Shown piece after piece: positions 32,597-53,480 of a DNA stretch of 64,000 nt (positions are counted from its first letter, which is position 1; every line of letters begins with the position of its first letter). The stretch comes from Caenorhabditis remanei. Its lineage: Eukaryota > Nematoda > Chromadorea > Rhabditida > Rhabditidae. The translations under genes were made by a program, and so were the position numbers. The notes below the pieces were generated by a model. That model was not told the DNA's origin. It saw only the letters and a list, made by a program, of their open reading frames with translations, and ran no database searches. The stretch is from assembly GCF_010183535.1 (NCBI RefSeq), contig NC_071329.1, forward strand, positions 19,172,879 to 19,236,878, read 5' to 3'.

Positions 32597-33697
32597 TCAT
32601 TCATCCGTAGAGACCACCTTCAACACAAGTTGATAGACGGTGCCGTCTTTTGACTGTATCTCAGTTCCATAGATAATAATCTTGGATATTGGGCTTATTG
32701 GAATCAAAAACCGCGGCTCTCTGTCGAGAAAACTGTAAAAATGAATGAAGAGTTGGAAATAATTTTAATTAATTGCGTACCGCACATTGATCCCCTCCAA
32801 ATCATTCTCGAACTCATCGAACTCATTTTTTAAGTCTCTCAGCATTCGTCTCATCCAAAAATCAAAAGTGAAGCCGAGCAAATACTCTGTTCCGACTTCC
32901 CTTCCGTTCTTTATCCAGTCGTTAATTATTTTCACTGCATCGACGTTTTCATAGCCAACATTATGAATAGATAGTTTTTTTCTGTGAAGTTTTTCAATTC
33001 CTTTAATCAGTTCGTTCTCTCCGTCAAACTGAAAAATCACATCTTCAGTGGTATTGACAACTGGATGATCAACATAAATTAATCTATCTTGAAAAAGTTT
33101 TAGATTTTTCAAAGGGAAGCTGCGAGAATCGATAATTGGAAGTAAATTCGTGAAATTGGAACAACCTATTGTTACCAATGTGTTGGTGATCAAGTTGAGT
33201 TTCACTGGAACTTGTTTATAAGACTTCATATAGTAGAAACCAACACAATCCACTAGGATACTAGGTTTTGCTTCCAAATACTTTTTCACTAATTTTTCCT
33301 TTGCTTCATGAATTTTCAAGAGTTCCTGCAGTTCTTCATCGGTTTCCCATTTCGAAAACAGGTACTCAAAGCCCGTGCCGTATGATAAATTGTCTAGAGA
33401 AACACAGTCGTCCCGTATTTCAAGATCTCTCACGCGAAGAGGGATTATCTTATCTAATTTTTGAAGAGCACTGTTACGAGATGTGATGTGATACCTGGAA
33501 GCGGTGTCGATAATAGGGAATTCATAAAAACTGAAGATAACTAACCGTTTTTTCGCTTCCAAATACTCCAATACAAGTTTCAGGGCAGGATAGGATAGAG
33601 GAGGAGGCATCGGTGATGTGTAGGGAAGGAATGAGGAAAGAATGAGGGGGGAGGTGGACAGTAGGGGATGAGACGGGGCAGAGATACCATCTGCCAC
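32597..33697 (-). CDS. DUF3557-family protein
   Basis: There are three exons on the minus strand: 33546-33697, 32781-33494 and 32597-32732 (stop TGA). They give 333 residues, or 304 if the Met at 33610 is used. The latter begins MPPPLSYPALKLVLEYLEA, which matches the usual start of this nematode family. The 51-nt intron 33495-33545 is a multiple of three without a stop, so a simple ORF reads through it. Splicing it restores the family pattern LEAKKR-YHITSRNSALQKLDK. The last exon supplies the conserved end, IIIYGTEIQSKDGTVYQLVLK. These proteins carry an F-box-like N-terminal motif and are expanded in Caenorhabditis; their function is unknown. No signal peptide or membrane segment is evident. 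Confidence 0.85.
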
Positions 33698-34289: not shown

Positions 34290-34682
34290 TTCTCAAAGTG
34301 AGTTTTTGATTTTTGGAAAGCAACTTTGCGAGTTTTGCATCAAACTCGATAAGAACTAAGTATTCAGAATCAGTAAATTTTCAGCTTTCATAAAAATACC
34401 CATAAGCCTGACTTCTGGGCAAGTTAAGTTCCGCCCTGCTTTCAGCGGACTACTGTAGTTTTCGCGTCGAGACCAAATTTTCTCGAAACCTTGCCATGAT
34501 TATACTGATTTTGAAGCACTCAACTTTCCGAATCCAAATATTTTATTTCCATGACATAGATTTGAATTAATAGACTTGGAATTTGGATTTTCTAAAACTA
34601 CAGTTGTAACTTCTGAGAGTATTCCTCTCGAAATCCGTCACAAATGCCTTATTTTTGAGGACGAAAATTTCTTGTCGGTGAA
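34290..34682 (-). pseudogene. Inverted copy of the NHL gene 3' end, left part (split by the element)
   Basis: Read on the minus strand, 34620-34682 begins TTCACCGACAAGAAATT and continues with CAAAAATAAGGCATTTGTGACGG, which matches the end of NHL exon 11 (31090-31255) with about 100 bases missing. Beyond it, 34290-34590 matches the parental 3' flank (31390-31870), including GAAAGCAGGGCGGAACTTAA; about 130 bases of the parental repeat are absent. The other half of the exon is at 53475-53540, on the far side of the mobile element. It is a decayed fragment and does not encode a protein. Confidence 0.85.
34677..34682. repeat. 6-bp target-site duplication, left (GGTGAA)
   Basis: GGTGAA precedes the element terminus AGAGAAGT at 34683 and recurs after the other terminus at 53475-53480. 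The intact NHL exon has the site once (as TTCACC near 31090), so this is a true target duplication. Six bases is the length typical of Polinton/Maverick integration. Confidence 0.9.
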
Positions 34683-35286
34683 AGAGAAGTATGGGTGTGT
34701 GCTAACGCACAGACAAGGTGAGGAGCAAGTGTGGCCATGTCATTGAGAACAGGGAAACCGTATTTCCAGCGCTATTGTTTGTTTGTTTATTGTTTATTTT
34801 TAATTAATTAATAATTATTCTGTTTTAACTAATTAGTTCTCTATCGCTAATTAGCATTTAATTAATTAGTTCAAGTAATTAAGAGAGTAAGTAACTGATA
34901 ATTCCAGAAGTTTGACACGTGAACATCATCATCTTGTCACGTGAACAGTTGATACACTTAATTCATTTTTGTTTTGAAACATGAACTTGAACATAATATA
35001 CAATGTTATTCTCAGAAAAGGGGTGTATTAGGCACAAAATACTACTTTCATGCATTTTCACACTTTTCAATGTTTTTACGGTGTCTTACGACTAATCACA
35101 AACCTGAAAATGGGCGGAGCCTAATAAAATAGTATTTAAGACGGCTTGTCCGTACCTAAATTATCATTCTGAGCAAAAATTTATGTGAGTTTTCATTTTA
35201 TTCATTTTTTTTTTTTTTGCTGTTTATGACTATTGTTTTCAATTTCAGATATTTATTCTAAAATTATAACATTCATCTTCCAGAAA

Positions 35287-35852
35287 ATGGCTAACTATAA
35301 GAGAATATTGTTGACAATTTCACATGATGAAGTTCAAATAGACGATCCAACATTTCCATCAAATGATGAATCATCTCCTGATGAAGTAGATGCCAAGGAA
35401 AACCTTCCGAGTCAAAAGGTACATAAAAGTATTTAAGTTTCAATTTACAAGTGTTAATATTTCAGCTCGAGTCAAAAAATATTGTAAGAGTTTTGAGAAA
35501 GACATTTGATGAGCCAAGAGGAAAGTTTCGAGGAGCGATTGCAACTGTCCGTCTTCTTCTCGAACTACCACCAGCTTTGATTTTGCTTGACTCAGGATCC
35601 GAAAAATTCGGAGAATGTGTTATCAAGCTCATGAAATCTCATAACCCATTCAAATCTGACCGCACCATCGTATCCATTGCCATTGATGGAGGTGACAATA
35701 ATTGTGATGTGTCTACTCAATTCAAACCAATAGGAGCCATCAAAAACTTTGATGTTGTTCGTTGTATTGAAAAGTCGGAGCACGACATCGACCTTGGACT
35801 CCGACAAACATCAGTGATTTTCACATATTTGAATCCACCAAGATCGAATTGA
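35287..35852 (+). CDS. Stand-alone relative of the polymerase N-terminal domain (left copy)
   Basis: Two exons, 35287-35418 and 35466-35852, encode 172 residues. The second exon resembles the polymerase N-terminus (exon 2 of the gene at 37939): both share VRVL near the start, then GxFxG, LELPP, a later NPFK/DPFK word, and both end in a TYLNPP motif. The stand-alone protein stops just after that motif, while the polymerase continues. It appears to be a duplicated N-terminal module, perhaps a replication accessory or priming-related protein; the function is inference. A TATTTAAG word at 35133-35140 and AATAAA at 35938-35943 bracket the gene. Its first exon is acidic (SNDESSPDEVDAKE). Confidence 0.75.
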
Positions 35853-35937
35853 AGTCGACTCTGTGTATTTTTGTTTAACTTTACACTATTTACAGTATCA
35901 ATAATCTATGTATACCTATATTATTTTGTAGTTCTTA

Positions 35938-35943
35938 AATAAA
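35938..35943 (+). terminator. Polyadenylation signal, small element gene (left)
   Basis: AATAAA occurs 86 bases after the stop of the small N-terminal-domain-like gene. The mirror copy is at 52214-52219 on the minus strand. Confidence 0.55.
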
Positions 35944-36240
35944 TTTTGTATTTTCCAATGAAGCGAAAAATGGAGCATTACATTAAAAACCAAGTCTGAA
36001 AATAATTCCAATGCGTTGTTATGTTGAAAATCAAAGCGGGGTTTGTATCAGACAAGAAGGAAACTTATCGCGATCGTGACTATAACAATAGGAATTATAC
36101 TAAGCATATAAATTATTATTCATTACATGAAGTGAATATATTTTTAATGAAAGGGTAAACTAATTAATTGCGAAACTAACACATAAAATGTTTATAGAGA
36201 AAAAAATACAATAATAGGTGAGTAAAAAGAGGTTTAGTCA

Positions 36241-36546
36241 TTATGAAGGTGTAGGGTGAGGTATATCAAGGTTTGTTATATGTAGATTTGACTTAAATGC
36301 TGTTGAGGAGATTTCGGCAGGAATAGTGTCGGCAGGCAATGAATTTAATAACCGGTTGTGAAAGTATTGAGCACCACGTTTAGTTGCATAAAGCAAGACA
36401 GACTCAATGTAGTAGGGATGTCTTCTTAACGATCCAAAGTTCAGAAGTGTAGTAAATAACTCATCAGGGTTAAAAATTTCTTCCGACACTATAGTTTTGT
36501 ACATGAGATTTAGCACAGACGTAAGTCTGTGGCATACATAAAACAA
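36241..36546 (-). CDS. Uncharacterised 101-codon ORF of the element (left copy)
   Basis: The frame runs opposite to the two neighbouring element genes and has protein-like composition: a helical, aromatic-rich N-terminal half (SEEIFNPDELFTTLLNF, RRHPYYIESVLLY) and a proline-rich end. The ATG may not be the true start, because a CCACAG acceptor-like site lies just inside it and an upstream exon may exist; no join in phase could be fixed. No family was recognised. A perfect 7-bp-arm hairpin, CACAGACTTACGTCTGTG, spans 36514-36531 in the coding start region. Confidence 0.45.
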   Translation of the reverse strand: MFYVCHRLTSVLNLMYKTIVSEEIFNPDELFTTLLNFGSLRRHPYYIESVLLYATKRGAQYFHNRLLNSLPADTIPAEISSTAFKSNLHITNLDIPHPTPS

Positions 36547-37938
36547 AAAGCAGTTTATTATTAGTCATATGTGGTATCAAATAGACAAAATACGTTCAGA
36601 TGAAGAATGTCACGTATACACTCAGACGAAAAATCTTCAAATTTCAATAACAAGAATAAACTTTTCATTTCAACTTCGTTCAAAAAATAGAGGAAACTTC
36701 ATTGTAAACTAAGGAGTTACTATGAATCCTGATTGATAGTTAATGAAATTAATAAGTCAGCATAAACAAAGTAACAAAAAGATAGCACAATAAATGTAAA
36801 ACAAGACGTAAGAAAACATATGTTTACACTTGACACAACTATATTCTAGTGTGATATTCTGAATTCGGTACAGTAGAATGAGGGCGTGAATATCAAACCT
36901 TGTTAGAAATTGCTAGAATAAATGAATACGCGGGCCTACTTCAGAATGATTAAGAATATAAATAAGTAGGGCTTGAAATGAGACGCGGTGGGACGTCCCG
37001 CGTCCCCGTCCCGCACGTCCCGGATTGTCATAAAACGGCTAAAAATGAACCTATATTCTTGAAACTTTGGAAATCGCATCCCCAGCTATGTCTTCGGGCT
37101 CTGTGAAAGTTTGACTACTCCCCGACAAAAATTGACAGTTTTCCAAAATGACCGGAAAAAATCTGGGACGCCCCATTTCGAGCGCTATAAATAAGACAGA
37201 GATTTAGGAGTCCGGTTCAAGCTCCTTGTGTGGTGGCGGGGGTCCCTTTTGTACTGCTGCTACTGGAATAACATTCTTAGAGATTGTGGGAGATTAAGAG
37301 GTTGTTGGGACGGTGACTAATCGATTGGGTCTTGGGAATGTGCTAGAAGGGGAAGATTATGAGTTGGGAAAGTAACTTGTCTGGAAATAGACTTCCGCGA
37401 CTGTATTCGGGATGTGAGTCATATGGGAACGCGGTGTGAGTGGCCAATCTGAGGATGACTAATGGAGCCGTGACAAACTATCCGTTAGGGATTACTGATC
37501 CCTTACACTAGGAGAGCTCACATATATTTTGCTAGGTCTTTCATTTGGTACTTTTATGAAACAAGTGACGTCATCACTAAAAACAATAGTATGACGTCAT
37601 AAAATGATATCGTGTTCGAACACTTACTGAAACAAAGTAGGAAAAGCTCTTGAAACAGTAATTTTACCTAAAACCACGTATTCCTTATATTCCCATTATT
37701 ATCACATTTTCTATACAGTGATGATAAACTTGCAAAAGTGACGATAATTGGACATATGGCGGTGGAATGATCAAGAATGATAGAATTCAGCATAAAGTAT
37801 GAAATAAGGCAAATTATCAACCACACGGAGGGGTATATAAGGCACATATTTTGACGGAAAATCATTCATTACACACTTTCACAAGTGCAGACTCTGCTTA
37901 TTCCTATTCTGAAATAATTTATTTTCTTTTAATTTCAT
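36547..37938. other. Element segment upstream of the polymerase gene
   Basis: No gene was recognised. 36980-37025 is a GC-rich run built on GGGACG/CGTCCC words, unlike its AT-rich surroundings; with 37030-37200 it looks like a nested dispersed repeat. Two CRE-like palindromes, TGACGTCA, occur at 37566-37573 and 37592-37599. A TATATAA box lies near the 3' end. The mirrored segment is 50219-51610. Confidence 0.55.
37834..37840 (+). promoter_or_regulatory. TATA box of the element polymerase gene (left)
   Basis: GGGTATATAAGG sits about 100 bases before the polymerase ATG at 37939. A strong TATA box is uncommon for housekeeping worm genes and suits a self-contained element promoter. The mirror copy is at 50317-50323. 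Confidence 0.55.
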
Positions 37939-40900
37939 ATGATGGATTCAAAACTAGATGAAAGTGATGACAAAGTGGTAAGAGAAATTACATTTTTATT
38001 TTGATTGAAAGATATATTAGGTACAAGTGGGAGGAGCCAATGTTCGAGTTCTGACAAAACTTGCTGAAGACGCAAAAGGAAGATTTAATGGACTTGTGAA
38101 GACAGTAACACTTTCTCTCGAACTTCCACCATCCATGACGTCAGATCCACGTGGAGCAGAACTATTTGCAGACACGCTGATTGAACTAGTTCAGAGAAAT
38201 GATCCATTCAAAACTCCACGGACTAGAGCAGGATTCAACTTCGAATCTTCAGAATTTCAAGAATCTGTTGGAATGGCATTCCAAAAAATCAATAATATGT
38301 CTGTTTCGGAGATTGTGGAAAATATGGCAAGGATGTCACAATCAAGTAGATCTCCTCTTGAACTAGAGGATCCCAAATTGACTTTGAGAATCACATATCT
38401 CAATCCACCGTCAGGAAGTGGAAAACGGAAGTTCAATACAGGAGATATTTTGGAGCTTACCGCATTTGAAAAGAAGAAAAAAACTGATGATACCATCTAC
38501 GAACCATGTTGTGAGACCAAAACTATGATGAAAACAAAACAGACGAGATCAAACATAATGCCAAATGAAGGTAACAAAATCATATGACTTCATAACAATA
38601 ATTATGTTTATTTCAGTACTTGAAAATTGCCTAGTTCATGCACTTTATCAAACTCTTATGTATCATGAATGGAAACAAAATCGTACCATTGAAAATCAAA
38701 ACAAGTACCGCAGTTCCGTCAGGAAAACATATAAACGCCCAGGAATTTGTTCAGAAGTATATGACGCAGTGAATGACTTGAAAGAGGTAAAAATATGGAT
38801 GTAATATATTATCAAACAAATTTTCATTTCAGAGAGCAGGAATGACGAAATCTAGTGATTTTGACAGACTGGATATAGATCAATTTCAGAAAACTGTATT
38901 TGCAAGTACACATCAAATAGTTGTCTTTGTTGAAAATTCAACTACGCCATACTATATGGGTCCCTATGTCGGGTCAAGTAAGCAACTGGTTTTGTATCTG
39001 TCTAACGGACACTTCAGCGGTGTGAGAAGTATCTGCGCACTTCTCAAAACGGAATATTATTGTTTTTTATGTAACACGAAGTACAATAATTCATCATCAC
39101 ACTACAATTGTCCACTAATTCATCGCGTGTGCGGCCAGAAGAACTGTATTATTTTGAAGGAAGATGAAGAAGTTCGTTGTAACAAATGCACAATTAAATT
39201 CCGTTCCCAGTTATGCTTTGAAAATCATTTGAAAAACGGTAACAAAACAGCATTTTAAAGTAGTTGACATATGCTTTCAGGACCTAAAAACGGAAAAAGT
39301 CGTTGTCAACACACACAATTTTGCAAGAAATGTGGTGAAGCATTTTATACAAACAAAAACAAGGATGCTCATAAGTGTGGAGAAAAATGGTGTTACCGAT
39401 GTAGCTGTAAAAGAGCAAAAAATCATCAATGCATTATGCCTATTTCAAAGAAAAATGAGAAGAGATTGACAAGGCGGCGAGTATTCTTTGACATTGAGGT
39501 ATAATCAATACCTAGTTTTATTTTTGTTAATGTATTGTTTTTAGAGTAGAGCAGATGAAAAGACGGGTCAACAGTATCCAGTTCTTTTTGTGGCACTTCG
39601 TTGTTGTCCAGAGTGTGCTTCATCAATACCAAAAGCTCTTAAAGATGCCTGGAAGGAAACTTGTAAAAAATGTGCACCGGATGGAAGACTGAAAATTATT
39701 GAATGTGTCACCATTAATAATAGAAACGTTGATGTTGCTTCTGAACTAACCGAATGGCTCTTTGCGGATCATCACAAAGGAAGTGTTTTACTGGCACACA
39801 ATGCATCTGGGTAATTTGTGATTGCTTAGAAAACATTATTAATACTACTTTTCAGATATGATGCACAATTCATACTGGAAAAGATGATAGCAAGTAACAA
39901 AGCGTCACCTAACCTTATACTGGATGGTACAAAACTGATATTCATGGAACATAGAGGTGTAAGATTGTTGGATTCAATGAAGTTTTTGACGATGAGTCTT
40001 TCTGCATTAGGGAAAGCATTCGAAATTGACTCAGTCAAAGGGCAAGTGATAATTCTTCTAGCTAAAACAAACTATTATTTTTCAGAGATTTTCCTGTTTT
40101 GTTCATAAAACCTGAACACTATGACTACAACGGCAGTATGCCAGAAGACAAATGGTACAATTTGGAAAACAAACCTTCTTCTGTTAAGAAGCAAGTCTTG
40201 AGTTTTCTTGAAAATGAGAGAAATGCAAACAAAACATTTCATTTTGTTGATGAAATCATAAGGTATTGCTACAATGATGTTTATATTCTTGCAAAAGCAA
40301 TGAATATTTTCGAAACAGAATTTGAAGCTATGACCAATGTGTGTCTTTTGGAAGTGAGTTATTTCCCATTTAATACAAAACGAAATGTACAAGTTCAGGA
40401 GTCAACAACTGCGGCGTCTGCTGCTGCACTAGTTTTTCGAAGAAATCACTTGGATCCTGAAAAACCAATTGTTTTAGATGTTAAGCCTTCTGCTTCTGTC
40501 AACAGTTCGGTAATCAGCCAAAAATACTTGGCATGGTTTGGAAGAAAAGAAGGAGTTCAAGTTAACATGTCTACCACATATGGCGAGCAAAAAGTAATTT
40601 GAAAGCAGTAGTGTTAAACTGAAAAGAAAATGTTACAGATTGGTGAATACCATGTAGATGGTTTTGTCTCTCCCTGTGAAAAATTTCCGGAAGGATTGAT
40701 TATTGAATTCTTTGTAAGTTTACGCATTTTTTGATAAAATCATTATTGTTTTTATTTTCAGGGGTGTTACTGGCATGCACATAATTGTACCTACACAAAA
40801 TCTTCTATAATTGGTAACGAAAATGGCGAAGAAATTTGGGATAGAGATGCAAAAAGATTGAAAAGTCTTAAAGAACACCATCCAGTGAAAGTAGTATGGG

Positions 40901-42700
40901 AGTGTGAAGTTAAGCGAGAACTGTTGTTTGACACTGAAATGGCAGAATTCTTCGACAACTATGAACCAATTGTAAGTTATCTAACTATCAAACAACAAAA
41001 TAATTTCATTTATCAGGGAATATTACACTGTGAAAAGTCTCTTGCTGGCGGTAGAACGGAAGTTTTCAAGTTGTACGCAAATAACGCTAGAAAAGTTCTG
41101 CGATATTTGGATGTAGTCAGGTAATTTAAATTACTAGTACTCAATAAATAACTAGTTTGCAGTTTGTATCCCACTGTCATGAAGCATGAGGCTTTTCCGA
41201 TTGGATCTCCTGAAAATGTACCCCAATCTACAATGAAAGTACCTATGAAGAAACCGGAAGATATAAAATTTCGAGGATTCATGAGCTGTCGAGTACTTCC
41301 ACCTCGCCAGTTGAATCTACCTATCCTACCTATCAAGTATGGGGGCAAATTGCTATTTGGACTATGTAGATGTAAGTTTGGTTAATTTAAAATTATGATA
41401 ACATTGTTTCTCCTGTGTTCAGGCTGTGCAAAGAAGATGAGTAACACGTCTTGCACCCACTCAAATGAAGAACGGTCATTCAATGGTACCTTCACAACAG
41501 CAGAATTGCAAAAAGCTCTTAGCCTTGGTTACACTATAATTGAAATTTACCACGTTAGTTCCAAATGAAGGGTTTGCTTTAAAATGTGGAATGTTATAGG
41601 GATTAAAATACAAACATTGGGCTCAAAATGATGCAAACGGAGAAGGTGGACTGTTCACTACCTATATAAATCAAATGATGGAGGAGAAAATAGTATGTTG
41701 TTACATATAGCGGTATAAAACGGAATTATTATATTTCAGTATAGTTCCGGATGGCCTTCAAATGTTAAGACAGAAGAAGAGAAACACGCATTTTGTCAAG
41801 AATACTTTGAAAAGGAACATATTCGACTGACTGATCATTCCCGTTTCAAGAAAAACCCAGGAAAACGTGCCGTAGCTAAACTGATGCTCAACTCATTGGT
41901 AATACTCTGTTTCATTATCTTTTATAATTGTATAATTTTGCAGTGGGGTAAATTTGCTCAGAACGTAGATCAAGAAACAACCAGCATCATAATTGATCCT
42001 TCAAAATTCTGGAATATGGTTTATGACACAAAAACAGTTATAACTGCCGCAAGGAGTGTAAATGATGTTTTGATTGTCAAACATCGTAAACAGGCTGAAA
42101 CTCTGGAAAGTATGAGAACGAGTGCTATGCAGCTTGCCACTTATACTACATCATATGCAAGACTTCGACTCTACCGCTTCATGGAAATGGTAGGAGGAGA
42201 AAACATAATCTATACAGGTGCGTTATTGCAAAATACCTCAAAAGTATATTTTTATCTTTATAGACACCGATTCTATTATCTACTCTGTACCGGAAGGTAC
42301 GGAAGATCCGCTAAAAGATGAAGTCGGTTCTTATTTGGGACAACTTACGGATGAGCTAAATGGTAAAATGACAGAATTTGTAAGCCTTGGACCAAAAACT
42401 TACTGCTATAAGGATCTACTTGACAACCATGAAGAAAAAATTGTGAGGAAAGCTAAAGGAATCATCATGAACTCACAAGTGGAGAAAGAAGTCAATTATG
42501 AAAAAATGAAAATCATGGTGGACGAAGCAATCGAAAATGCACAAGATCGTACAAGTCTCTACCTCCCACAACACACCATTTATAGAGACAATAATCATAG
42601 GATGTACAGTAGGAACATCAAGAAAATTTTTAAGTACACTTTCAACAAACGTAGACTGTTATGTGATGGATCAACACTACCGTTTGGTTATTGTGACTAA
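37939..42700 (+). CDS. Protein-primed-type family B DNA polymerase (left copy)
   Basis: There are 17 exons: 37939-37977, 38021-38570, 38617-38786, 38833-39238, 39281-39498, 39545-39810, 39856-40041, 40086-40593, 40639-40713, 40762-40971, 41017-41120, 41163-41371, 41423-41553, 41600-41692, 41740-41898, 41944-42217 and 42264-42700. They sum to 4035 nt (1344 residues) with no frame break. The intron at 40042 uses a GC donor (GCAAGT). An N-terminal unique domain and Cys/His clusters (CFLC, CNKC, CKKC) come first. The exonuclease follows, with FFDIE (~460), HNASGYDAQFIL (~548) and YCYNDV (~672). The palm has DVVSLYPT (~910), KLMLNSLWGKF (~1108) and YTDTDSIIY (~1198), with the catalytic aspartates present. 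The family replicates linear DNA from a terminal protein. All motifs are intact, so it may be active. Confidence 0.92.
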
Positions 42701-43889
42701 CTTGTTTTTACACGTGTCATACTGTTAGCATAAAAATGTTATTAAATAAATATATTTTATAAAAGTTAAGTGAAAAGTCGATTACTGAATAAAAAATGTG
42801 GTTACGTGTTTCACACAGAAGGGAAATTTGTATGTGGCAAGCGGAAACCATACAAGTTGAGCATTTTATTGTAATACGTTAATAATTTTATTTATAAAAT
42901 AACAAAATAAAGAAACAAAAAGTTTGAAATGAGTGTAACAACAACAAAAAACTATATTTTCAAATTGTCTGTTACAAAATGAAAGAACTGAGTTGTTATT
43001 TTTCCTGAGAATCTTTGTTTTCTAAACCTTAAATTTTGCCATAGTTTCGAAATTGTTAATACTTTCATTTATGAGTCAGGTTGTGAGGCTCGGCAAACGT
43101 CGTTTTTGCTTCTTTCCCTATGAGTCATCCTAACAGTGTTTGTTTCCAAGGTTTGGGTCCCGTCGTGAATGACTAATTTTGATTTGTCATCAAAAAAAAA
43201 GAATTGGGATGAGGGAATACGAATCGAAACCAATATAGTGGGGAATTAATAAAATACAAACTAGGAAAATTATTTCAAGATCACAAAATACACGGATTGT
43301 TATACCTGATTTTATTTATTTAAAAACTTTATTGTTAAGCCATTATTTTGAAAAAGAAGTTTGAAAATAGTTTGGTGTTACTATGTCATTTCCCCCTTCC
43401 TAGTCAGGAAGAATACAAGGAAAACAAAGAAAGTACCGCCTTTGTCTGGTATTAAAAAAAAAAAGAGAACTTGTGAGATTTAATGACTTAGTTTTTAATT
43501 AAAAGTCAGATTATGTTTATATATTCGATATAAACACTTTAGAAATTAAAATTTATTAGTATTTTTTTGGGGAAACAAGTCATGAAAGGAAACAAGGTGT
43601 GTAGTTATTGTTAAATAACTATTTAAAATAATTAATTCTATTTTTGCAAATTATAAAAAACAAAAATATCTCTAATAGAAATACCTTTACCACGCTTTAT
43701 CTATGTTTAACATAATAAAATTGAGTGAAATGTATTTTTATTCCAGAACTGTATTCCATTTGCTGTTCACTTTTTCATATTTTTCCTTTAAATTGACGAA
43801 AACTTGTAATTATGACTGTCAAAACAGTGTTTTCTGATAAGTTTCGAGGAAACGATTCTCGCATCGAATGTGCCAGAGAAATATGGGGG
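42701..43889. other. Inner, gene-free end of the left arm
   Basis: This is AT-rich DNA with no coding frame of note. AATAAA at 42745-42750, 45 bases after the polymerase stop, is the likely polyadenylation signal. The final bases run into the spacer at the GGGGGACCCCC word. The mirror image is 44268-45456. Confidence 0.6.
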
Positions 43890-44267
43890 ACCCCCTACGA
43901 CATGTCCCCATCCTTTCTCTCTGGACCTTTTTTTTTTTTAATTGTTTTTTGCTTTACATTGCTTCTTATTGTTGACTATGACGTCATCACTAAGATAGAG
44001 ACCGGCCAGAGGCGCGAGAGAGTACACACCGCGCGGAGGGAGCGAGAGAGTACACAAAGAGAGGAGGGTGTTAGACAAACAGAGAGAGGCGGTCGGCAGC
44101 GAGAGTTCGGAGAAATGACATGGAGGAGGGGAGGGGGGATGTGCGCGCGCGCGCCGGAGAGGAGGACCATCATGGATATGGTCGGGAGCCAGGTCGGCCA
44201 CGGTAGAGAGCCATACTACCAGACTACACTTTGGCAAAGATCAAAGATCAACTTGTGTCGTAGGGGA
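43890..44267. other. Central spacer of the palindrome
   Basis: This 378-bp unpaired segment is very different from the arms. It is purine-rich on the + strand with reiterated GAGAGAGTACACA and AGAGAGG words and a GCGCGCGCGCGCC run near 44142-44154. Near its left edge it has TGACGTCATCACTAA (43979-43993), a 15-mer also present upstream of the polymerase gene. The outermost 12-13 bases on each side are weakly complementary. It codes for nothing recognisable. It may be a loop left by fold-back replication, a captured host promoter-like tract, or the remnant of a larger single-copy centre. Confidence 0.7.
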
Positions 44268-45456
44268 CCCCCATATTTCTCTGGCACATTCGATGCGAGA
44301 ATCGTTTCCTCGAAACTTATCAGAAAACACTGTTTTGACAGTCATAATTACAAGTTTTCGTCAATTTAAAGGAAAAATATGAAAAAGTGAACAGCAAATG
44401 GAATACAGTTCTGGAATAAAAATACATTTCACTCAATTTTATTATGTTAAACATAGATAAAGCGTGGTAAAGGTATTTCTATTAGAGATATTTTTGTTTT
44501 TTATAATTTGCAAAAATAGAATTAATTATTTTAAATAGTTATTTAACAATAACTACACACCTTGTTTCCTTTCATGACTTGTTTCCCCAAAAAAATACTA
44601 ATAAATTTTAATTTCTAAAGTGTTTATATCGAATATATAAACATAATCTGACTTTTAATTAAAAACTAAGTCATTAAATCTCACAAGTTCTCTTTTTTTT
44701 TTTAATACCAGACAAAGGCGGTACTTTCTTTGTTTTCCTTGTATTCTTCCTGACTAGGAAGGGGGAAATGACATAGTAACACCAAACTATTTTCAAACTT
44801 CTTTTTCAAAATAATGGCTTAACAATAAAGTTTTTAAATAAATAAAATCAGGTATAACAATCCGTGTATTTTGTGATCTTGAAATAATTTTCCTAGTTTG
44901 TATTTTATTAATTCCCCACTATATTGGTTTCGATTCGTATTCCCTCATCCCAATTCTTTTTTTTTGATGACAAATCAAAATTAGTCATTCACGACGGGAC
45001 CCAAACCTTGGAAACAAACACTGTTAGGATGACTCATAGGGAAAGAAGCAAAAACGACGTTTGCCGAGCCTCACAACCTGACTCATAAATGAAAGTATTA
45101 ACAATTTCGAAACTATGGCAAAATTTAAGGTTTAGAAAACAAAGATTCTCAGGAAAAATAACAACTCAGTTCTTTCATTTTGTAACAGACAATTTGAAAA
45201 TATAGTTTTTTGTTGTTGTTACACTCATTTCAAACTTTTTGTTTCTTTATTTTGTTATTTTATAAATAAAATTATTAACGTATTACAATAAAATGCTCAA
45301 CTTGTATGGTTTCCGCTTGCCACATACAAATTTCCCTTCTGTGTGAAACACGTAACCACATTTTTTATTCAGTAATCGACTTTTCACTTAACTTTTATAA
45401 AATATATTTATTTAATAACATTTTTATGCTAACAGTATGACACGTGTAAAAACAAG

Positions 45457-48400
45457 TTAGTCACAATAACCAAACGGTAGTGTTGATCCATCACATAACA
45501 GTCTACGTTTGTTGAAAGTGTACTTAAAAATTTTCTTGATGTTCCTACTGTACATCCTATGATTATTGTCTCTATAAATGGTGTGTTGTGGGAGGTAGAG
45601 ACTTGTACGATCTTGTGCATTTTCGATTGCTTCGTCCACCATGATTTTCATTTTTTCATAATTGACTTCTTTCTCCACTTGTGAGTTCATGATGATTCCT
45701 TTAGCTTTCCTCACAATTTTTTCTTCATGGTTGTCAAGTAGATCCTTATAGCAGTAAGTTTTTGGTCCAAGGCTTACAAATTCTGTCATTTTACCATTTA
45801 GCTCATCCGTAAGTTGTCCCAAATAAGAACCGACTTCATCTTTTAGCGGATCTTCCGTACCTTCCGGTACAGAGTAGATAATAGAATCGGTGTCTATAAA
45901 GATAAAAATATACTTTTGAGGTATTTTGCAATAACGCACCTGTATAGATTATGTTTTCTCCTCCTACCATTTCCATGAAGCGGTAGAGTCGAAGTCTTGC
46001 ATATGATGTAGTATAAGTGGCAAGCTGCATAGCACTCGTTCTCATACTTTCCAGAGTTTCAGCCTGTTTACGATGTTTGACAATCAAAACATCATTTACA
46101 CTCCTTGCGGCAGTTATAACTGTTTTTGTGTCATAAACCATATTCCAGAATTTTGAAGGATCAATTATGATGCTGGTTGTTTCTTGATCTACGTTCTGAG
46201 CAAATTTACCCCACTGCAAAATTATACAATTATAAAAGATAATGAAACAGAGTATTACCAATGAGTTGAGCATCAGTTTAGCTACGGCACGTTTTCCTGG
46301 GTTTTTCTTGAAACGGGAATGATCAGTCAGTCGAATATGTTCCTTTTCAAAGTATTCTTGACAAAATGCGTGTTTCTCTTCTTCTGTCTTAACATTTGAA
46401 GGCCATCCGGAACTATACTGAAATATAATAATTCCGTTTTATACCGCTATATGTAACAACATACTATTTTCTCCTCCATCATTTGATTTATATAGGTAGT
46501 GAACAGTCCACCTTCTCCGTTTGCATCATTTTGAGCCCAATGTTTGTATTTTAATCCCTATAACATTCCACATTTTAAAGCAAACCCTTCATTTGGAACT
46601 AACGTGGTAAATTTCAATTATAGTGTAACCAAGGCTAAGAGCTTTTTGCAATTCTGCTGTTGTGAAGGTACCATTGAATGACCGTTCTTCATTTGAGTGG
46701 GTGCAAGACGTGTTACTCATCTTCTTTGCACAGCCTGAACACAGGAGAAACAATGTTATCATAATTTTAAATTAACCAAACTTACATCTACATAGTCCAA
46801 ATAGCAATTTGCCCCCATACTTGATAGGTAGGATAGGTAGATTCAACTGGCGAGGTGGAAGTACTCGACAGCTCATGAATCCTCGAAATTTTATATCTTC
46901 CGGTTTCTTCATAGGTACTTTCATTGTAGATTGGGGTACATTTTCAGGAGATCCAATCGGAAAAGCCTCATGCTTCATGACAGTGGGATACAAACTGCAA
47001 ACTAGTTATTTATTGAGTACTAGTAATTTAAATTACCTGACTACATCCAAATATCGCAGAACTTTTCTAGCGTTATTTGCGTACAACTTGAAAACTTCCG
47101 TTCTACCGCCAGCAAGAGACTTTTCACAGTGTAATATTCCCTGATAAATGAAATTATTTTGTTGTTTGATAGTTAGATAACTTACAATTGGTTCATAGTT
47201 GTCGAAGAATTCTGCCATTTCAGTGTCAAACAACAGTTCTCGCTTAACTTCACACTCCCATACTACTTTCACTGGATGGTGTTCTTTAAGACTTTTCAAT
47301 CTTTTTGCATCTCTATCCCAAATTTCTTCGCCATTTTCGTTACCAATTATAGAAGATTTTGTGTAGGTACAATTATGTGCATGCCAGTAACACCCCTGAA
47401 AATAAAAACAATAATGATTTTATCAAAAAATGCGTAAACTTACAAAGAATTCAATAATCAATCCTTCCGGAAATTTTTCACAGGGAGAGACAAAACCATC
47501 TACATGGTATTCACCAATCTGTAACATTTTCTTTTCAGTTTAACACTACTGCTTTCAAATTACTTTTTGCTCGCCATATGTGGTAGACATGTTAACTTGA
47601 ACTCCTTCTTTTCTTCCAAACCATGCCAAGTATTTTTGGCTGATTACCGAACTGTTGACAGAAGCAGAAGGCTTAACATCTAAAACAATTGGTTTTTCAG
47701 GATCCAAGTGATTTCTTCGAAAAACTAGTGCAGCAGCAGACGCCGCAGTTGTTGACTCCTGAACTTGTACATTTCGTTTTGTATTAAATGGGAAATAACT
47801 CACTTCCAAAAGACACACATTGGTCATAGCTTCAAATTCTGTTTCGAAAATATTCATTGCTTTTGCAAGAATATAAACATCATTGTAGCAATACCTTATG
47901 ATTTCATCAACAAAATGAAATGTTTTGTTTGCATTTCTCTCATTTTCAAGAAAACTCAAGACTTGCTTCTTAACAGAAGAAGGTTTGTTTTCCAAATTGT
48001 ACCATTTGTCTTCTGGCATACTGCCGTTGTAGTCATAGTGTTCAGGTTTTATGAACAAAACAGGAAAATCTCTGAAAAATAATAGTTTGTTTTAGCTAGA
48101 AGAATTATCACTTGCCCTTTGACTGAGTCAATTTCGAATGCTTTCCCTAATGCAGAAAGACTCATCGTCAAAAACTTCATTGAATCCAACAATCTTACAC
48201 CTCTATGTTCCATGAATATCAGTTTTGTACCATCCAGTATAAGGTTAGGTGACGCTTTGTTACTTGCTATCATCTTTTCCAGTATGAATTGTGCATCATA
48301 TCTGAAAAGTAGTATTAATAATGTTTTCTAAGCAATCACAAATTACCCAGATGCATTGTGTGCCAGTAAAACACTTCCTTTGTGATGATCCGCAAAGAGC

Positions 48401-50218
48401 CATTCGGTTAGTTCAGAAGCAACATCAACGTTTCTATTATTAATGGTGACACATTCAATAATTTTCAGTCTTCCATCCGGTGCACATTTTTTACAAGTTT
48501 CCTTCCAGGCATCTTTAAGAGCTTTTGGTATTGATGAAGCACACTCTGGACAACAACGAAGTGCCACAAAAAGAACTGGATACTGTTGACCCGTCTTTTC
48601 ATCTGCTCTACTCTAAAAACAATACATTAACAAAAATAAAACTAGGTATTGATTATACCTCAATGTCAAAGAATACTCGCCGCCTTGTCAATCTCTTCTC
48701 ATTTTTCTTTGAAATAGGCATAATGCATTGATGATTTTTTGCTCTTTTACAGCTACATCGGTAACACCATTTTTCTCCACACTTATGAGCATCCTTGTTT
48801 TTGTTTGTATAAAATGCTTCACCACATTTCTTGCAAAATTGTGTGTGTTGACAACGACTTTTTCCGTTTTTAGGTCCTGAAAGCATATGTCAACTACTTT
48901 AAAATGCTGTTTTGTTACCGTTTTTCAAATGATTTTCAAAGCATAACTGGGAACGGAATTTAATTGTGCATTTGTTACAACGAACTTCTTCATCTTCCTT
49001 CAAAATAATACAGTTCTTCTGGCCGCACACGCGATGAATTAGTGGACAATTGTAGTGTGATGATGAATTATTGTACTTCGTGTTACATAAAAAACAATAA
49101 TATTCCGTTTTGAGAAGTGCGCAGATACTTCTCACACCGCTGAAGTGTCCGTTAGACAGATACAAAACCAGTTGCTTACTTGACCCGACATAGGGACCCA
49201 TATAGTATGGCGTAGTTGAATTTTCAACAAAGACAACTATTTGATGTGTACTTGCAAATACAGTTTTCTGAAATTGATCTATATCCAGTCTGTCAAAATC
49301 ACTAGATTTCGTCATTCCTGCTCTCTGAAATGAAAATTTGTTTGATAATATATTACATCCATATTTTTACCTCTTTCAAGTCATTCACTGCGTCATATAC
49401 TTCTGAACAAATTCCTGGGCGTTTATATGTTTTCCTGACGGAACTGCGGTACTTGTTTTGATTTTCAATGGTACGATTTTGTTTCCATTCATGATACATA
49501 AGAGTTTGATAAAGTGCATGAACTAGGCAATTTTCAAGTACTGAAATAAACATAATTATTGTTATGAAGTCATATGATTTTGTTACCTTCATTTGGCATT
49601 ATGTTTGATCTCGTCTGTTTTGTTTTCATCATAGTTTTGGTCTCACAACATGGTTCGTAGATGGTATCATCAGTTTTTTTCTTCTTTTCAAATGCGGTAA
49701 GCTCCAAAATATCTCCTGTATTGAACTTCCGTTTTCCACTTCCTGACGGTGGATTGAGATATGTGATTCTCAAAGTCAATTTGGGATCCTCTAGTTCAAG
49801 AGGAGATCTACTTGATTGTGACATCCTTGCCATATTTTCCACAATCTCCGAAACAGACATATTATTGATTTTTTGGAATGCCATTCCAACAGATTCTTGA
49901 AATTCTGAAGATTCGAAGTTGAATCCTGCTCTAGTCCGTGGAGTTTTGAATGGATCATTTCTCTGAACTAGTTCAATCAGCGTGTCTGCAAATAGTTCTG
50001 CTCCACGTGGATCTGACGTCATGGATGGTGGAAGTTCGAGAGAAAGTGTTACTGTCTTCACAAGTCCATTAAATCTTCCTTTTGCGTCTTCAGCAAGTTT
50101 TGTCAGAACTCGAACATTGGCTCCTCCCACTTGTACCTAATATATCTTTCAATCAAAATAAAAATGTAATTTCTCTTACCACTTTGTCATCACTTTCATC
50201 TAGTTTTGAATCCATCAT
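45457..50218 (-). CDS. Protein-primed-type family B DNA polymerase (right copy)
   Basis: This is the mirror of the gene at 37939-42700. Exons, in transcript order, are 50180-50218, 49587-50136, 49371-49540, 48919-49324, 48659-48876, 48347-48612, 48116-48301, 47564-48071, 47444-47518, 47186-47395, 47037-47140, 46786-46994, 46604-46734, 46465-46557, 46259-46417, 45940-46213 and 45457-45893. Every frame gives the same translation as the left copy, so both are predicted intact 1344-residue enzymes with the same exonuclease and palm motifs. Two identical convergent copies would yield complementary transcripts if either read through the spacer, which could trigger small-RNA silencing. Confidence 0.92.
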
Positions 50219-50316
50219 ATGAAATTAAAAGAAAATAAATTATTTCAGAATAGGAATAAGCAGAGTCTGCACTTGTGAAAGTGTGTAATGAATGATTTTC
50301 CGTCAAAATATGTGCC

Positions 50317-50323
50317 TTATATA
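50317..50323 (-). promoter_or_regulatory. TATA box of the element polymerase gene (right)
   Basis: Mirror copy of the TATATAA at 37834-37840, about 100 bases before the right-copy polymerase ATG (50218). Confidence 0.55.
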
Positions 50324-51610
50324 CCCCTCCGTGTGGTTGATAATTTGCCTTATTTCATACTTTATGCTGAATTCTATCATTCTTGATCATTCCACCGCCA
50401 TATGTCCAATTATCGTCACTTTTGCAAGTTTATCATCACTGTATAGAAAATGTGATAATAATGGGAATATAAGGAATACGTGGTTTTAGGTAAAATTACT
50501 GTTTCAAGAGCTTTTCCTACTTTGTTTCAGTAAGTGTTCGAACACGATATCATTTTATGACGTCATACTATTGTTTTTAGTGATGACGTCACTTGTTTCA
50601 TAAAAGTACCAAATGAAAGACCTAGCAAAATATATGTGAGCTCTCCTAGTGTAAGGGATCAGTAATCCCTAACGGATAGTTTGTCACGGCTCCATTAGTC
50701 ATCCTCAGATTGGCCACTCACACCGCGTTCCCATATGACTCACATCCCGAATACAGTCGCGGAAGTCTATTTCCAGACAAGTTACTTTCCCAACTCATAA
50801 TCTTCCCCTTCTAGCACATTCCCAAGACCCAATCGATTAGTCACCGTCCCAACAACCTCTTAATCTCCCACAATCTCTAAGAATGTTATTCCAGTAGCAG
50901 CAGTACAAAAGGGACCCCCGCCACCACACAAGGAGCTTGAACCGGACTCCTAAATCTCTGTCTTATTTATAGCGCTCGAAATGGGGCGTCCCAGATTTTT
51001 TCCGGTCATTTTGGAAAACTGTCAATTTTTGTCGGGGAGTAGTCAAACTTTCACAGAGCCCGAAGACATAGCTGGGGATGCGATTTCCAAAGTTTCAAGA
51101 ATATAGGTTCATTTTTAGCCGTTTTATGACAATCCGGGACGTGCGGGACGGGGACGCGGGACGTCCCACCGCGTCTCATTTCAAGCCCTACTTATTTATA
51201 TTCTTAATCATTCTGAAGTAGGCCCGCGTATTCATTTATTCTAGCAATTTCTAACAAGGTTTGATATTCACGCCCTCATTCTACTGTACCGAATTCAGAA
51301 TATCACACTAGAATATAGTTGTGTCAAGTGTAAACATATGTTTTCTTACGTCTTGTTTTACATTTATTGTGCTATCTTTTTGTTACTTTGTTTATGCTGA
51401 CTTATTAATTTCATTAACTATCAATCAGGATTCATAGTAACTCCTTAGTTTACAATGAAGTTTCCTCTATTTTTTGAACGAAGTTGAAATGAAAAGTTTA
51501 TTCTTGTTATTGAAATTTGAAGATTTTTCGTCTGAGTGTATACGTGACATTCTTCATCTGAACGTATTTTGTCTATTTGATACCACATATGACTAATAAT
51601 AAACTGCTTT

Positions 51611-51916
51611 TTGTTTTATGTATGCCACAGACTTACGTCTGTGCTAAATCTCATGTACAAAACTATAGTGTCGGAAGAAATTTTTAACCCTGATGAGTTA
51701 TTTACTACACTTCTGAACTTTGGATCGTTAAGAAGACATCCCTACTACATTGAGTCTGTCTTGCTTTATGCAACTAAACGTGGTGCTCAATACTTTCACA
51801 ACCGGTTATTAAATTCATTGCCTGCCGACACTATTCCTGCCGAAATCTCCTCAACAGCATTTAAGTCAAATCTACATATAACAAACCTTGATATACCTCA
51901 CCCTACACCTTCATAA
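51611..51916 (+). CDS. Uncharacterised 101-codon ORF of the element (right copy)
   Basis: Mirror of 36241-36546, with an identical translation. Upstream at about 51488 a short frame starting MKSLFLLLKFEDF could be a first exon, but no canonical donor joins it in the right phase to the CCACAG acceptor at about 51630. The start is therefore unresolved. The hairpin CACAGACTTACGTCTGTG is at 51626-51643. Function unknown. Confidence 0.45.
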   Translation: MFYVCHRLTSVLNLMYKTIVSEEIFNPDELFTTLLNFGSLRRHPYYIESVLLYATKRGAQYFHNRLLNSLPADTIPAEISSTAFKSNLHITNLDIPHPTPS

Positions 51917-52304
51917 TGACTAAACCTCTTTTTACTCACCTATTATTGTATTTTTTTCTCTATAAACATTTTATGTGTTAGTTTCGCAATTAATTAGTTT
52001 ACCCTTTCATTAAAAATATATTCACTTCATGTAATGAATAATAATTTATATGCTTAGTATAATTCCTATTGTTATAGTCACGATCGCGATAAGTTTCCTT
52101 CTTGTCTGATACAAACCCCGCTTTGATTTTCAACATAACAACGCATTGGAATTATTTTCAGACTTGGTTTTTAATGTAATGCTCCATTTTTCGCTTCATT
52201 GGAAAATACAAAATTTATTTAAGAACTACAAAATAATATAGGTATACATAGATTATTGATACTGTAAATAGTGTAAAGTTAAACAAAAATACACAGAGTC
52301 GACT

Positions 52305-52870
52305 TCAATTCGATCTTGGTGGATTCAAATATGTGAAAATCACTGATGTTTGTCGGAGTCCAAGGTCGATGTCGTGCTCCGACTTTTCAATACAACGAAC
52401 AACATCAAAGTTTTTGATGGCTCCTATTGGTTTGAATTGAGTAGACACATCACAATTATTGTCACCTCCATCAATGGCAATGGATACGATGGTGCGGTCA
52501 GATTTGAATGGGTTATGAGATTTCATGAGCTTGATAACACATTCTCCGAATTTTTCGGATCCTGAGTCAAGCAAAATCAAAGCTGGTGGTAGTTCGAGAA
52601 GAAGACGGACAGTTGCAATCGCTCCTCGAAACTTTCCTCTTGGCTCATCAAATGTCTTTCTCAAAACTCTTACAATATTTTTTGACTCGAGCTGAAATAT
52701 TAACACTTGTAAATTGAAACTTAAATACTTTTATGTACCTTTTGACTCGGAAGGTTTTCCTTGGCATCTACTTCATCAGGAGATGATTCATCATTTGATG
52801 GAAATGTTGGATCGTCTATTTGAACTTCATCATGTGAAATTGTCAACAATATTCTCTTATAGTTAGCCAT
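52305..52870 (-). CDS. Stand-alone relative of the polymerase N-terminal domain (right copy)
   Basis: Mirror of 35287-35852: exons 52739-52870 and 52305-52691, 172 residues, translation identical to the left copy. It lies just inside the right terminus and is transcribed inward, ahead of the polymerase gene on the same strand, as in the left arm. Confidence 0.75.
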
Positions 52871-53474
52871 TTTCTGGAAGATGAATGTTATAATTTTAGA
52901 ATAAATATCTGAAATTGAAAACAATAGTCATAAACAGCAAAAAAAAAAAAAATGAATAAAATGAAAACTCACATAAATTTTTGCTCAGAATGATAATTTA
53001 GGTACGGACAAGCCGTCTTAAATACTATTTTATTAGGCTCCGCCCATTTTCAGGTTTGTGATTAGTCGTAAGACACCGTAAAAACATTGAAAAGTGTGAA
53101 AATGCATGAAAGTAGTATTTTGTGCCTAATACACCCCTTTTCTGAGAATAACATTGTATATTATGTTCAAGTTCATGTTTCAAAACAAAAATGAATTAAG
53201 TGTATCAACTGTTCACGTGACAAGATGATGATGTTCACGTGTCAAACTTCTGGAATTATCAGTTACTTACTCTCTTAATTACTTGAACTAATTAATTAAA
53301 TGCTAATTAGCGATAGAGAACTAATTAGTTAAAACAGAATAATTATTAATTAATTAAAAATAAACAATAAACAAACAAACAATAGCGCTGGAAATACGGT
53401 TTCCCTGTTCTCAATGACATGGCCACACTTGCTCCTCACCTTGTCTGTGCGTTAGCACACACCCATACTTCTCT

Positions 53475-53480
53475 GGTGAA
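53475..53480. repeat. 6-bp target-site duplication, right (GGTGAA)
   Basis: Directly follows the right terminus ACTTCTCT. It pairs with 34677-34682 and continues into the interrupted NHL-exon copy (GATGACGACGATTTGACC). Confidence 0.9.

What the first reader, a model, noticed from the sequence alone, without database searches (positions are those of the whole stretch)
34683..53474. An 18.8-kb Polinton-like element that is one near-perfect palindrome
Coordinates pair as x to 88157-x from 34683 to 43889 with 44268 to 53474, without a detectable indel and with identical translations in both arms. AG/CT termini, a 6-bp target duplication and a protein-primed-type polymerase point to the Polinton/Maverick group. 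Terminal repeats in that group are usually hundreds of bases to about 1 kb, not half the element. A head-to-head dimer formed by fold-back or template switching during protein-primed replication would explain it.
Basis: partly seen in the sequence, partly recalled or inferred. Interest (0 to 1): 0.95.

Follow-up and report, generated by a model that had tools for sequence, protein, structure and literature searches.

The report
Mirror-image satellite transposon in a roundworm
An 18.8-kb virus-like jumping element in a roundworm genome reads almost the same on both strands from end to end, and it belongs to a family of such mirror-image elements that keep a DNA-copying enzyme but show no integrase or coat genes, so they look like self-folding parasites of ordinary Maverick elements.

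Summary
Confirmed. The 9,207-bp arms 34683-43889 and 44268-53474 pair without mismatch or indel; the unpaired centre is 378 bp; the target duplication is GGTGAA. The genome is Caenorhabditis remanei PX506. It is not a one-off: I paired 19 mirror-image loci. All 11 tested have perfect 6-bp duplications. Arms within an element are nearly identical (5 mismatches in 35.3 kb over ten loci), while elements differ by 1.5-36%. Arms evolve in concert: a 220-bp insertion sits in both arms here and in neither arm of two relatives. Each arm carries a family-B polymerase under purifying selection; no integrase or capsid gene was found. The centre holds a buried terminus: its right 252 bp match ends of Maverick-type elements at 88-94%, and arm identity stops 6-26 bp inside that terminus in 8 of 9 elements. 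Total length is close to that of Mavericks. Best reading: polymerase-bearing, integrase-less Maverick satellites whose genome is rebuilt by snap-back (fold-back) copying from a buried right end, like adeno-associated virus snapback genomes but inherited as a transposon family. Trans-mobilisation and packaging are inferred.

The parts
34677..34682 (.). left copy of the 6-bp target duplication GGTGAA
   Evidence: identical to 53475-53480
53475..53480 (.). right copy of the 6-bp target duplication GGTGAA
34683..43889 (+). left arm of the palindrome, begins AGAGAAGTATGGG, ends in the buried terminus motif
   Evidence: 0 mismatches in 9,207 positions against 44268-53474
44268..53474 (-). right arm of the palindrome, ends CCCATACTTCTCT
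43890..44267 (.). unpaired central spacer (loop)
   Evidence: with its edges 96% identical to the spacers of two relatives on contig C4
43875..43889 (+). left buried terminus motif AGAGAAATATGGGGG (proposed internal annealing site)
44268..44282 (-). right buried terminus motif, outermost bases of a buried end (proposed 3' primer)
44031..44282 (+). buried end: 252 bp that match the ends of Maverick-type elements elsewhere in the genome at 88-94%
   Evidence: query positions 157-408
35427..35849 (+). ORF-A, paralogue of ORF-B; dN/dS about 0.25 against the C3 relative
52308..52730 (-). ORF-A, right-arm copy
38021..38584 (+). ORF-B, probably the N-terminal exon of the polymerase gene (conserved end followed by a splice-donor-like GAAG|GTAACA); dN/dS about 0.21 against the C3 relative
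   Evidence: the model resembles part of the mavirus polymerase only weakly
49573..50136 (-). ORF-B, right-arm copy
38791..42697 (+). family-B DNA polymerase gene in several exons; exonuclease and polymerase motifs legible across the exons
45460..49366 (-). polymerase gene, right-arm copy with identical exon translations
36967..37186 (+). 220-bp dispersed repeat inserted with a roughly 10-bp duplication; the site is empty in both arms of two relatives
50971..51190 (-). the same 220-bp insertion at the mirror position

Best explanation
This is one copy of a family of Maverick-derived satellite elements. The unit is half a Maverick (left end plus polymerase) joined to a short right end. Its displaced or packaged single strand folds back: the 3' right terminus anneals to an inverted copy of the terminus motif just inside the arm and primes synthesis back along the arm to the left end. 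The result is a full-length palindrome with a 0.4-1 kb loop. Shown: the palindrome, its family distribution, concerted arm evolution, the buried end at the boundary of arm identity, Maverick-type termini and 6-bp duplications, no integrase found, and purifying selection on the polymerase. Inferred: snap-back priming as the step that renews arm identity in each round of replication; integrase (and perhaps capsids) supplied in trans by full Mavericks; doubling of a half-length genome to near the length of full Mavericks as a packaging adaptation.
For: Palindrome exact; three close relatives are palindromes with 1-2 mismatches and 0-3 indels over 7,994-9,336 arm positions. 19 mirrored ORF-B pairs, hand-paired from the list (38 of the 126 matches); the polymerase pair has the same mirror constant in 18 of 19. 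Arm against arm: 5 mismatches and 1 gap in 35,295 columns over ten loci; between those ten elements 63.7-98.5%; 0 mismatches in 4,330 columns over eight more loci. Symmetric insertion; 146 substitutions between the left arms of two relatives against 2 and 2 arm asymmetries. 6-bp duplications, all different, in 11 of 11 palindromes. Buried end: the window spacer matches nine ends of Maverick-type elements, eight of them exactly to the terminus; the C6:9.4 spacer matches the polymerase-distal end of four such elements at 77-91%, of which one (C16) was later dropped for lack of a target duplication, while the opposite end of the other three matches only 41 bp. Arm identity ends 6-26 bp inside the buried terminus in 8 of 9. 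No rve match inside any of the 19 (150 of 232 candidates scored) and only chance matches to a Maverick integrase in the pieces held. Lengths 16.4-19.3 kb (11 palindromes) against 16.1-20.0 kb for six Mavericks with verified duplications. dN/dS 0.15 and 0.20 against two relatives.
Against: No replicating or packaged molecule was seen. The internal annealing site requires a pre-existing inverted terminus copy, whose origin is unexplained. In the C1 relative, spacer identity runs 274 bp inward, so homogenisation can pass the boundary. In situ gene conversion would also make arms identical. The outer ends of two palindromes show no nucleotide similarity to the ends of the two Mavericks compared, so the donor of the left half is not identified; the one contig where a palindrome-like left end (99%) and a Maverick right end bracket a polymerase (C16) lacks a target duplication and was dropped. 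Monophyly of the palindromes in the polymerase tree is weakly supported (0.329). Several relatives have a stop inside an exon window (8 of the 9 other palindromes among the first ten show one or two; one stop in each of four exon windows of the C3 and in one of the C4 relative); these may lie in introns or mark broken copies. The capsid model found only 3 matches in the genome, so its absence from palindromes is weak evidence.
Confidence: 0.62

Rival explanations
1. One ancient dimerisation made the palindrome; afterwards ordinary chromosomal gene conversion between the two arms, not replication, keeps them identical.
For: Arms are near-identical in the stretches compared at all 19 counted loci. 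Conversion in long palindromes is established in other genomes (recalled). The C1 spacer is 92% self-inverted and identical for 274 bp inside the motif. The centre-deleted copy C4:3.57, which should no longer fold and copy in this way, still has only 2 differences in 1,985 bp.
Against: Arm identity stops at the buried terminus in 8 of 9, although the adjoining C2 and C6 spacer halves are themselves 80-82% inverted. A 1.15-kb insertion is present in one arm only at C62, and C122 at 310-322 kb has a locally 1.2% diverged stretch.
Confidence: 0.25
2. Assembly artefact: fold-back reads or collapsed repeats created the second arm.
For: No reads were available. Contig C40 carries what looks like a larger inverted duplication that includes flanking sequence, which may be such an artefact.
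Against: Eleven palindromes end exactly at inverted termini with different perfect 6-bp duplications. At the four loci tested the 200 bases next to the ends mirror each other at only 28-31%; 2-kb flanks give no inverted match at the window and C4:10.56, and weak short ones (72-95% over 20-397 bp, repeat-like) at C4:20.22 and C3. Of the four arm pairs compared end to end, three differ at a few sites. The same spacer recurs at different loci. Fifteen of the 19 pairs lie on the six chromosome-length contigs.
Confidence: 0.03
3. Repeated dead-end products: each palindrome arose separately from a Maverick as a defective by-product and never replicates as a palindrome.
For: AAV snapback by-products are a major category of defective particles in another system (PMC8235507, passages read); arms are young at each locus.
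Against: Palindromes of one subfamily share the same asymmetric spacer at 96% or 89-94%, and the same arm architecture, so the palindromic state was inherited through several insertions; their polymerase is under purifying selection.
Confidence: 0.07

Closest known systems
Polinton/Maverick elements (autonomous)
   Same: 6-bp target duplications, AG...CT termini, a related family-B polymerase, similar total length
   Different: No integrase or capsid found; terminal inverted repeats of 8.0-9.3 kb instead of 27-653 bp in the five Mavericks measured; same genes twice, head to head; buried end in the centre
AAV snapback (self-complementary) defective genomes, PMC8235507
   Same: One moiety of a viral genome duplicated head to head, sometimes around a loop (passages read)
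   Different: AAV ones are by-products of a Rep-dependent single-stranded virus; these are chromosomal insertions with a polymerase gene of their own, inherited as a family
Adenovirus incomplete-particle genomes (Daniell 1976; not held)
   Same: Recalled: deleted genomes with extended inverted terminal duplications; [quoted passage not shown]
   Different: Not integrated, not a lineage
Mavirus and other virophages
   Same: Virus-like elements that depend on another virus (recalled; listings)
   Different: Virophages carry capsid genes (PMC4409740 abstract start); none was found in the palindromes
Foldback (FB-type) transposons
   Same: Long inverted repeats
   Different: FB arms consist of tandem subrepeats (recalled); here tandem-repeat search found only one 55-bp array, in the spacer

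Membership tests
Polinton/Maverick | 6-bp target site duplication | tested here: met
   window GGTGAA; 11 of 11 palindromes
Polinton/Maverick | 5'-AG ... CT-3' termini | tested here: met
   terminus shared with Mavericks of the same genome
Polinton/Maverick | family-B (protein-primed type) DNA polymerase | tested here: met
   PF03175 in four exon pieces; protein priming itself not testable
Polinton/Maverick | RVE-family integrase | tested here: not met
   no rve match inside 19 palindromes (150 of 232 candidates scored); only chance tblastn matches to a Maverick integrase in the held pieces
Polinton/Maverick | capsid, ATPase and protease genes | tested here: not met
   26 of 26 frames of 70 aa or more over one window arm and spacer scanned with Pfam: polymerase only, the rest chance-level; DJR capsid model 3 matches genome-wide, none in a palindrome. 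Weak for divergent or finely split genes
Polinton/Maverick | terminal inverted repeats of hundreds of bp, with unlike halves | tested here: not met
   repeats are the whole arm
snapback defective or satellite genome | self-complementary genome made of one moiety of the helper | tested here: inconclusive
   self-complementary: met; right end shared with Maverick-type elements; the donor of the left half not identified at nucleotide level
snapback defective or satellite genome | lacks functions of the helper | tested here: met
   integrase not found
snapback defective or satellite genome | depends on and is packaged by a helper | not testable with these tools
   no virion or expression data
Foldback transposon | inverted repeats built of tandem subrepeats | tested here: not met
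   only a 55-bp two-copy array, in the spacer

The most novel reading that the evidence does not exclude
A heritable lineage of obligate snapback satellites of animal Mavericks: half-length genomes that carry their own replication polymerase, borrow integrase and capsids, and exist only as full-length palindromes, with a buried viral terminus serving as hairpin primer so that one arm is the template for the other in every replication cycle. They would be the Maverick world's equivalent of self-complementary AAV, fixed as a transposon family.
Probability: 0.45. Interest if true: 0.93.

Novelty: new variant of a known kind. Interest (0 to 1): 0.86.

Why it matters
Mavericks are suspected viruses of animals whose particles have not been observed (abstract start of PMC8097293). 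A satellite family whose genome is doubled to about the helper's length would be indirect evidence that length, and hence packaging, matters. The buried terminus gives a sequence-level record of fold-back priming, a step otherwise discussed for defective viral genomes. The family is also a natural experiment on how 9-kb perfect palindromes persist in animal chromosomes and on concerted evolution outside tandem arrays.

Tried and rejected
Assembly artefact: rejected on 11 different target duplications, but reads not seen. Autonomous Polinton: rejected, integrase not found. Spacer as a small element inserted at the centre: it has element-like inverted edges, but in the window its flanks are reverse complements, not direct duplications. 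Simple end-to-end fusion of two right ends: the buried termini point the other way. C16:2546-20341 as a Maverick that shares the palindromes' left end: dropped, no target duplication; C156 likewise. C2:13.28 was in the length list but its duplication was never tested, so it is left out of the lengths given here. C40 was not counted as a palindrome because its inverted duplication goes beyond the element. C122 near 274-281 kb was not counted: its two arms belong to different subfamilies (94% to C6:4.85 and 99% to C5:13.5), either a hybrid or a misjoin. Similarity in phage records, IMG/VR contigs and PDB sequences (one 150-aa piece): none. ORF-B model: no match at E 0.001 in PDB; best viral match a mavirus polymerase, E 3.6e-4 but TM 0.36, too weak to name a function. 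Paper searches for palindromic Mavericks (listings only) showed no title or abstract start that describes them. The library lacks most subscription journals, and Widen et al. 2023, the PX506 assembly paper and Daniell 1976 are not held, so prior description cannot be excluded. Repbase could not be searched.
Full report
WHAT WAS CLAIMED AND WHAT IS THERE. Every position from 34683 to 43889 pairs with 88157 minus that position: 9,207 pairs, no mismatch, no indel. Pairing fails outside 34683/53474 and inside 43889/44268. The element is flanked by GGTGAA on both sides and has AGAGAAGTATGGG/CCCATACTTCTCT termini. GC is 0.35 against 0.37 and 0.39 in the flanks.

WHERE IT IS. The window lies at G000:C2:19172879-19236878 in a 130.5-Mb genome. 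A protein named as Caenorhabditis remanei sits on a contig of 17,877,849 bases, the length of G000 contig C3, and PMC10461856 (passages read) gives 17,247,545 for chromosome I of C. remanei PX506, the length of contig C1. So this is C. remanei PX506; that contig C2 is chromosome II is inferred from the order.

GENE CONTENT. One arm with the spacer has 26 stop-to-stop frames of 70 aa or more; all 26 were scanned with Pfam (19). The only family above its cut-off is the family-B polymerase PF03175, at E 1.4e-9 and 1e-9, with two further pieces at 7.8e-6 and 1.2e-4; the rest are chance-level (the best, DUF4187 at 0.0012, is below its cut-off). Motifs legible across exons, named from memory, are FFDIE, HN..YDAQF, YCYND, SLYP, KLMLNS/WGKF and DTDS. 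Translations of the seven exon pieces checked are the same in both arms. ORF-B (38021-38584) lies upstream of the polymerase in palindromes and in many single-copy loci; it ends in a conserved RSNIMPNEG-like stretch followed by a donor-like GAAG|GTAACA, so it is probably the first large exon of the polymerase gene. ORF-A (35427-35849) is a diverged copy of it; ORF-A-type matches, apart from the ORF-B matches that the same query also finds, lie in the window, C3, C4:10.56, C4:20.22, C5:4.4, C5:20.6, C5:21.5, C98, C124, C6:5.2, C4:3.57 and C62 palindromes and in fragments (for example C6:21.05, C4:3.03); I saw none beside the C1/C6:9.4 group. Against the C3 relative dN/dS is 0.15 over all exons, against the C4:20.22 relative 0.20 (exon borders approximate; codons with gaps or stops left out; one stop each in four exon windows of C3 and one of C4). 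One search also reports stops within the exon-wide match of 8 of the 9 other palindromes among its first ten; they may lie in introns or mark broken copies. No integrase was found: none of the 150 scored rve matches (232 candidates) lies inside a palindrome (the nearest, at C98, starts 163 bp outside the end), and a Maverick integrase of this genome gives only chance matches in the held pieces (best E 1.2; whole arms for four palindromes, 3.5-kb parts for six more).

IT IS A FAMILY. A 3-kb DNA query and two protein queries find mirrored pairs of matches at many loci. I paired the ORF-B matches by hand: 19 convergent pairs, 38 of 126 matches, 15 pairs on the six chromosome-length contigs and four on smaller contigs (C62, C98, C122, C124). 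In 18 of 19 the polymerase pair has the same mirror constant as the ORF-B pair; C62 is off by 1,150 bases because of an insertion in its left arm alone. One of the 19, C4:3.57, has lost its centre and part of one arm. Single-armed or one-sided relatives also exist, many on short contigs, for example C6:21.04, C6:21.29, C148 and C6:19.78; the spacer query found no spacer at C6:19.78, and I have no example of an intact monomer, but I did not examine every single-armed match.

Three relatives were walked arm against arm: 2 mismatches and 2 indels in 9,316 positions, 2 and 3 in 9,336, 1 and 0 in 7,994. Pieces of 3.5 kb from ten loci (these three, the window and six more) give 5 mismatches and 1 gap in 35,295 columns; between loci identity is 63.7-98.5%. 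Pieces of about 0.54 kb from eight further loci give 0 mismatches in 4,330 columns. Less perfect stretches: C122 at 310-322 kb has 5 mismatches and 2 gaps in 571 bp of ORF-B but none in 510 bp of polymerase; C5:20.6 has 1 in 570; C4:3.57 has 2 in 1,985. Perfect 6-bp duplications, all different, flank 11 of 11 palindromes tested. Of eight intervals taken for Mavericks and tested, six have the duplication; two (C16, C156) do not and were dropped. At four palindromes the flanks are not inverted copies of each other (mirror identity 28-31% in the adjoining 200 bases; weak repeat-like inverted hits within 2 kb at two of the four).

CONCERTED ARMS. Between the left arms of the two C4 relatives there are 146 substitutions, while each has only 2 arm-to-arm mismatches, so nearly all change is shared by both arms of an element. 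A 220-bp dispersed repeat with a roughly 10-bp duplication occupies the same mirror position in both arms of the window element, and both arms of both C4 relatives have the empty site. Spacers of one subfamily are homologous (window and C4 relatives 96%; the C6:9.4 group 89-94%), so the palindromic state was inherited, and the arms were renewed from one another after the elements had separated.

THE BURIED TERMINUS. The centre is bounded on both sides by the element's own terminus motif, facing into the spacer. Outward from it the arms are identical over the 78-100 bases shown; inward, identity lasts 15 bp in the window and 6, 13, 15, 20, 21, 22 and 26 bp in seven relatives, but 274 bp in the C1 relative. 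The right part of the window spacer, 252 bp, matches nine ends of Maverick-type elements at 88-94%; in eight the match ends exactly at a terminus seen, the ninth (C122:204078) was not checked. Among them are both ends of C5:18247328-18263425, which has a perfect CATGCC duplication and a single polymerase, but no rve match was listed inside it; the others were not tested as whole elements or (C156) lack a duplication. Two near-full spacer copies also lie on C1 near 14.08 Mb. The C6:9.4 spacer matches the polymerase-distal end of C5:22.15, C5:18.61, C4:9.88 and the dropped C16 at 77-91%, while the polymerase-proximal ends of the first three match only 41 bp. The C5:4.4 and C124 spacers match both ends of the C1:15.3 Maverick at 87-88% over 106-115 bp. 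So a right-type end is buried at the middle of these palindromes. The C3 spacer edge (AGAGAATTGTGG) is only loosely terminus-like.

MECHANISM. These facts fit one step well: a strand ...left end-polymerase-motif-loop-right end-3' folds so that the 3' right terminus pairs with the inner motif copy, and the polymerase copies the arm back to the left end. This predicts two like ends outside, a different end buried inside, arm identity beginning at the buried terminus, and an unpaired loop that is not homogenised. All four are seen, the last with the C1 exception. That the step recurs at every cycle is inferred; chromosomal gene conversion is the main rival. That the integrase comes from Mavericks is inferred from shared termini and duplication length. 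Length: 11 palindromes 16,402-19,283 bp (median 18,707); six Mavericks with verified duplications 16,098-19,978 bp. Equal length with half the information is expected if the genome must fill a capsid, but this remains an inference; the capsid model found only three loci in this genome.

TREE. A FastTree of a 178-column exon region from 18 palindromes and 23 other loci puts the 18 together with four of the others: C4:3.57 (the nineteenth palindrome), the left arm of the C122 hybrid, C148 and C6:21.29; the remaining 19 loci lie outside. The node that unites this group has support 0.329; the node that joins it to the nearest outside pair has 0.947. Of the polymerase loci without a mirror partner, at least eight have an rve match 4-6 kb downstream on the same strand.

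KNOWN PARALLELS. AAV snapback genomes are self-complementary molecules of the left or right moiety (PMC8235507, passages). Vertebrate Mavericks have 6-bp duplications and AG-type end motifs (PMC8097293, passages). [quoted passage not shown] Nematode Mavericks carry a putative fusogen and move genes between species (PMC10680173, passage). No listing showed a palindromic Maverick family, in a library that lacks most subscription journals.

CHANGES AT CHECKING.

VERDICT. I file it as a new variant of a known kind, not as an autonomous Maverick.

Noticed in passing
G000:C62:15609-16756 (coordinates): A 1.15-kb insertion lies in the left arm only of the C62 palindrome; a similar-sized gap at another arm position is seen on C128 and C7.
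   Followed up: partly
G000:C122:273770-281210 (L090, L113): Convergent polymerase arms of two different subfamilies (86% to each other) around a buried terminus: a hybrid palindrome, or a misjoin.
   Followed up: partly
G000:C40:60083-141735: Apparent larger inverted duplication around a palindrome, with an rve match on both sides and another in each half; possibly an assembly fold-back.
   Followed up: no
G000:C2:19719641-19728440, C4:5720283-5728670, C6:21105053-21113182: Loci with an rve match, a polymerase and, in between, a short inverted fragment of the polymerase: partial fold-backs, perhaps intermediates.
   Followed up: no
window 37204-37508 and mirror: 305 bp at 93% to direct repeats about 11.8 kb apart with an rve match between them on C161 and C6, so LTR-like; in both arms here and in the C4 relatives, not aligned in the C3 relative.
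   Followed up: partly
G000:C1:14082208-14086360: Two near-full copies of the window's spacer in inverted orientation, 3.4 kb apart; no arm match was listed there.
   Followed up: no
window 32768-33697 (-) and 4476-5033 (-): Host frames left of the element: a DUF3557 protein about 1 kb away and an SLC12 fragment.
   Followed up: no
ORF-A 35427-35849: A stand-alone copy of the probable polymerase N-terminal exon, seen in some palindromes and fragments; a candidate priming or regulatory partner, untested.
   Followed up: partly
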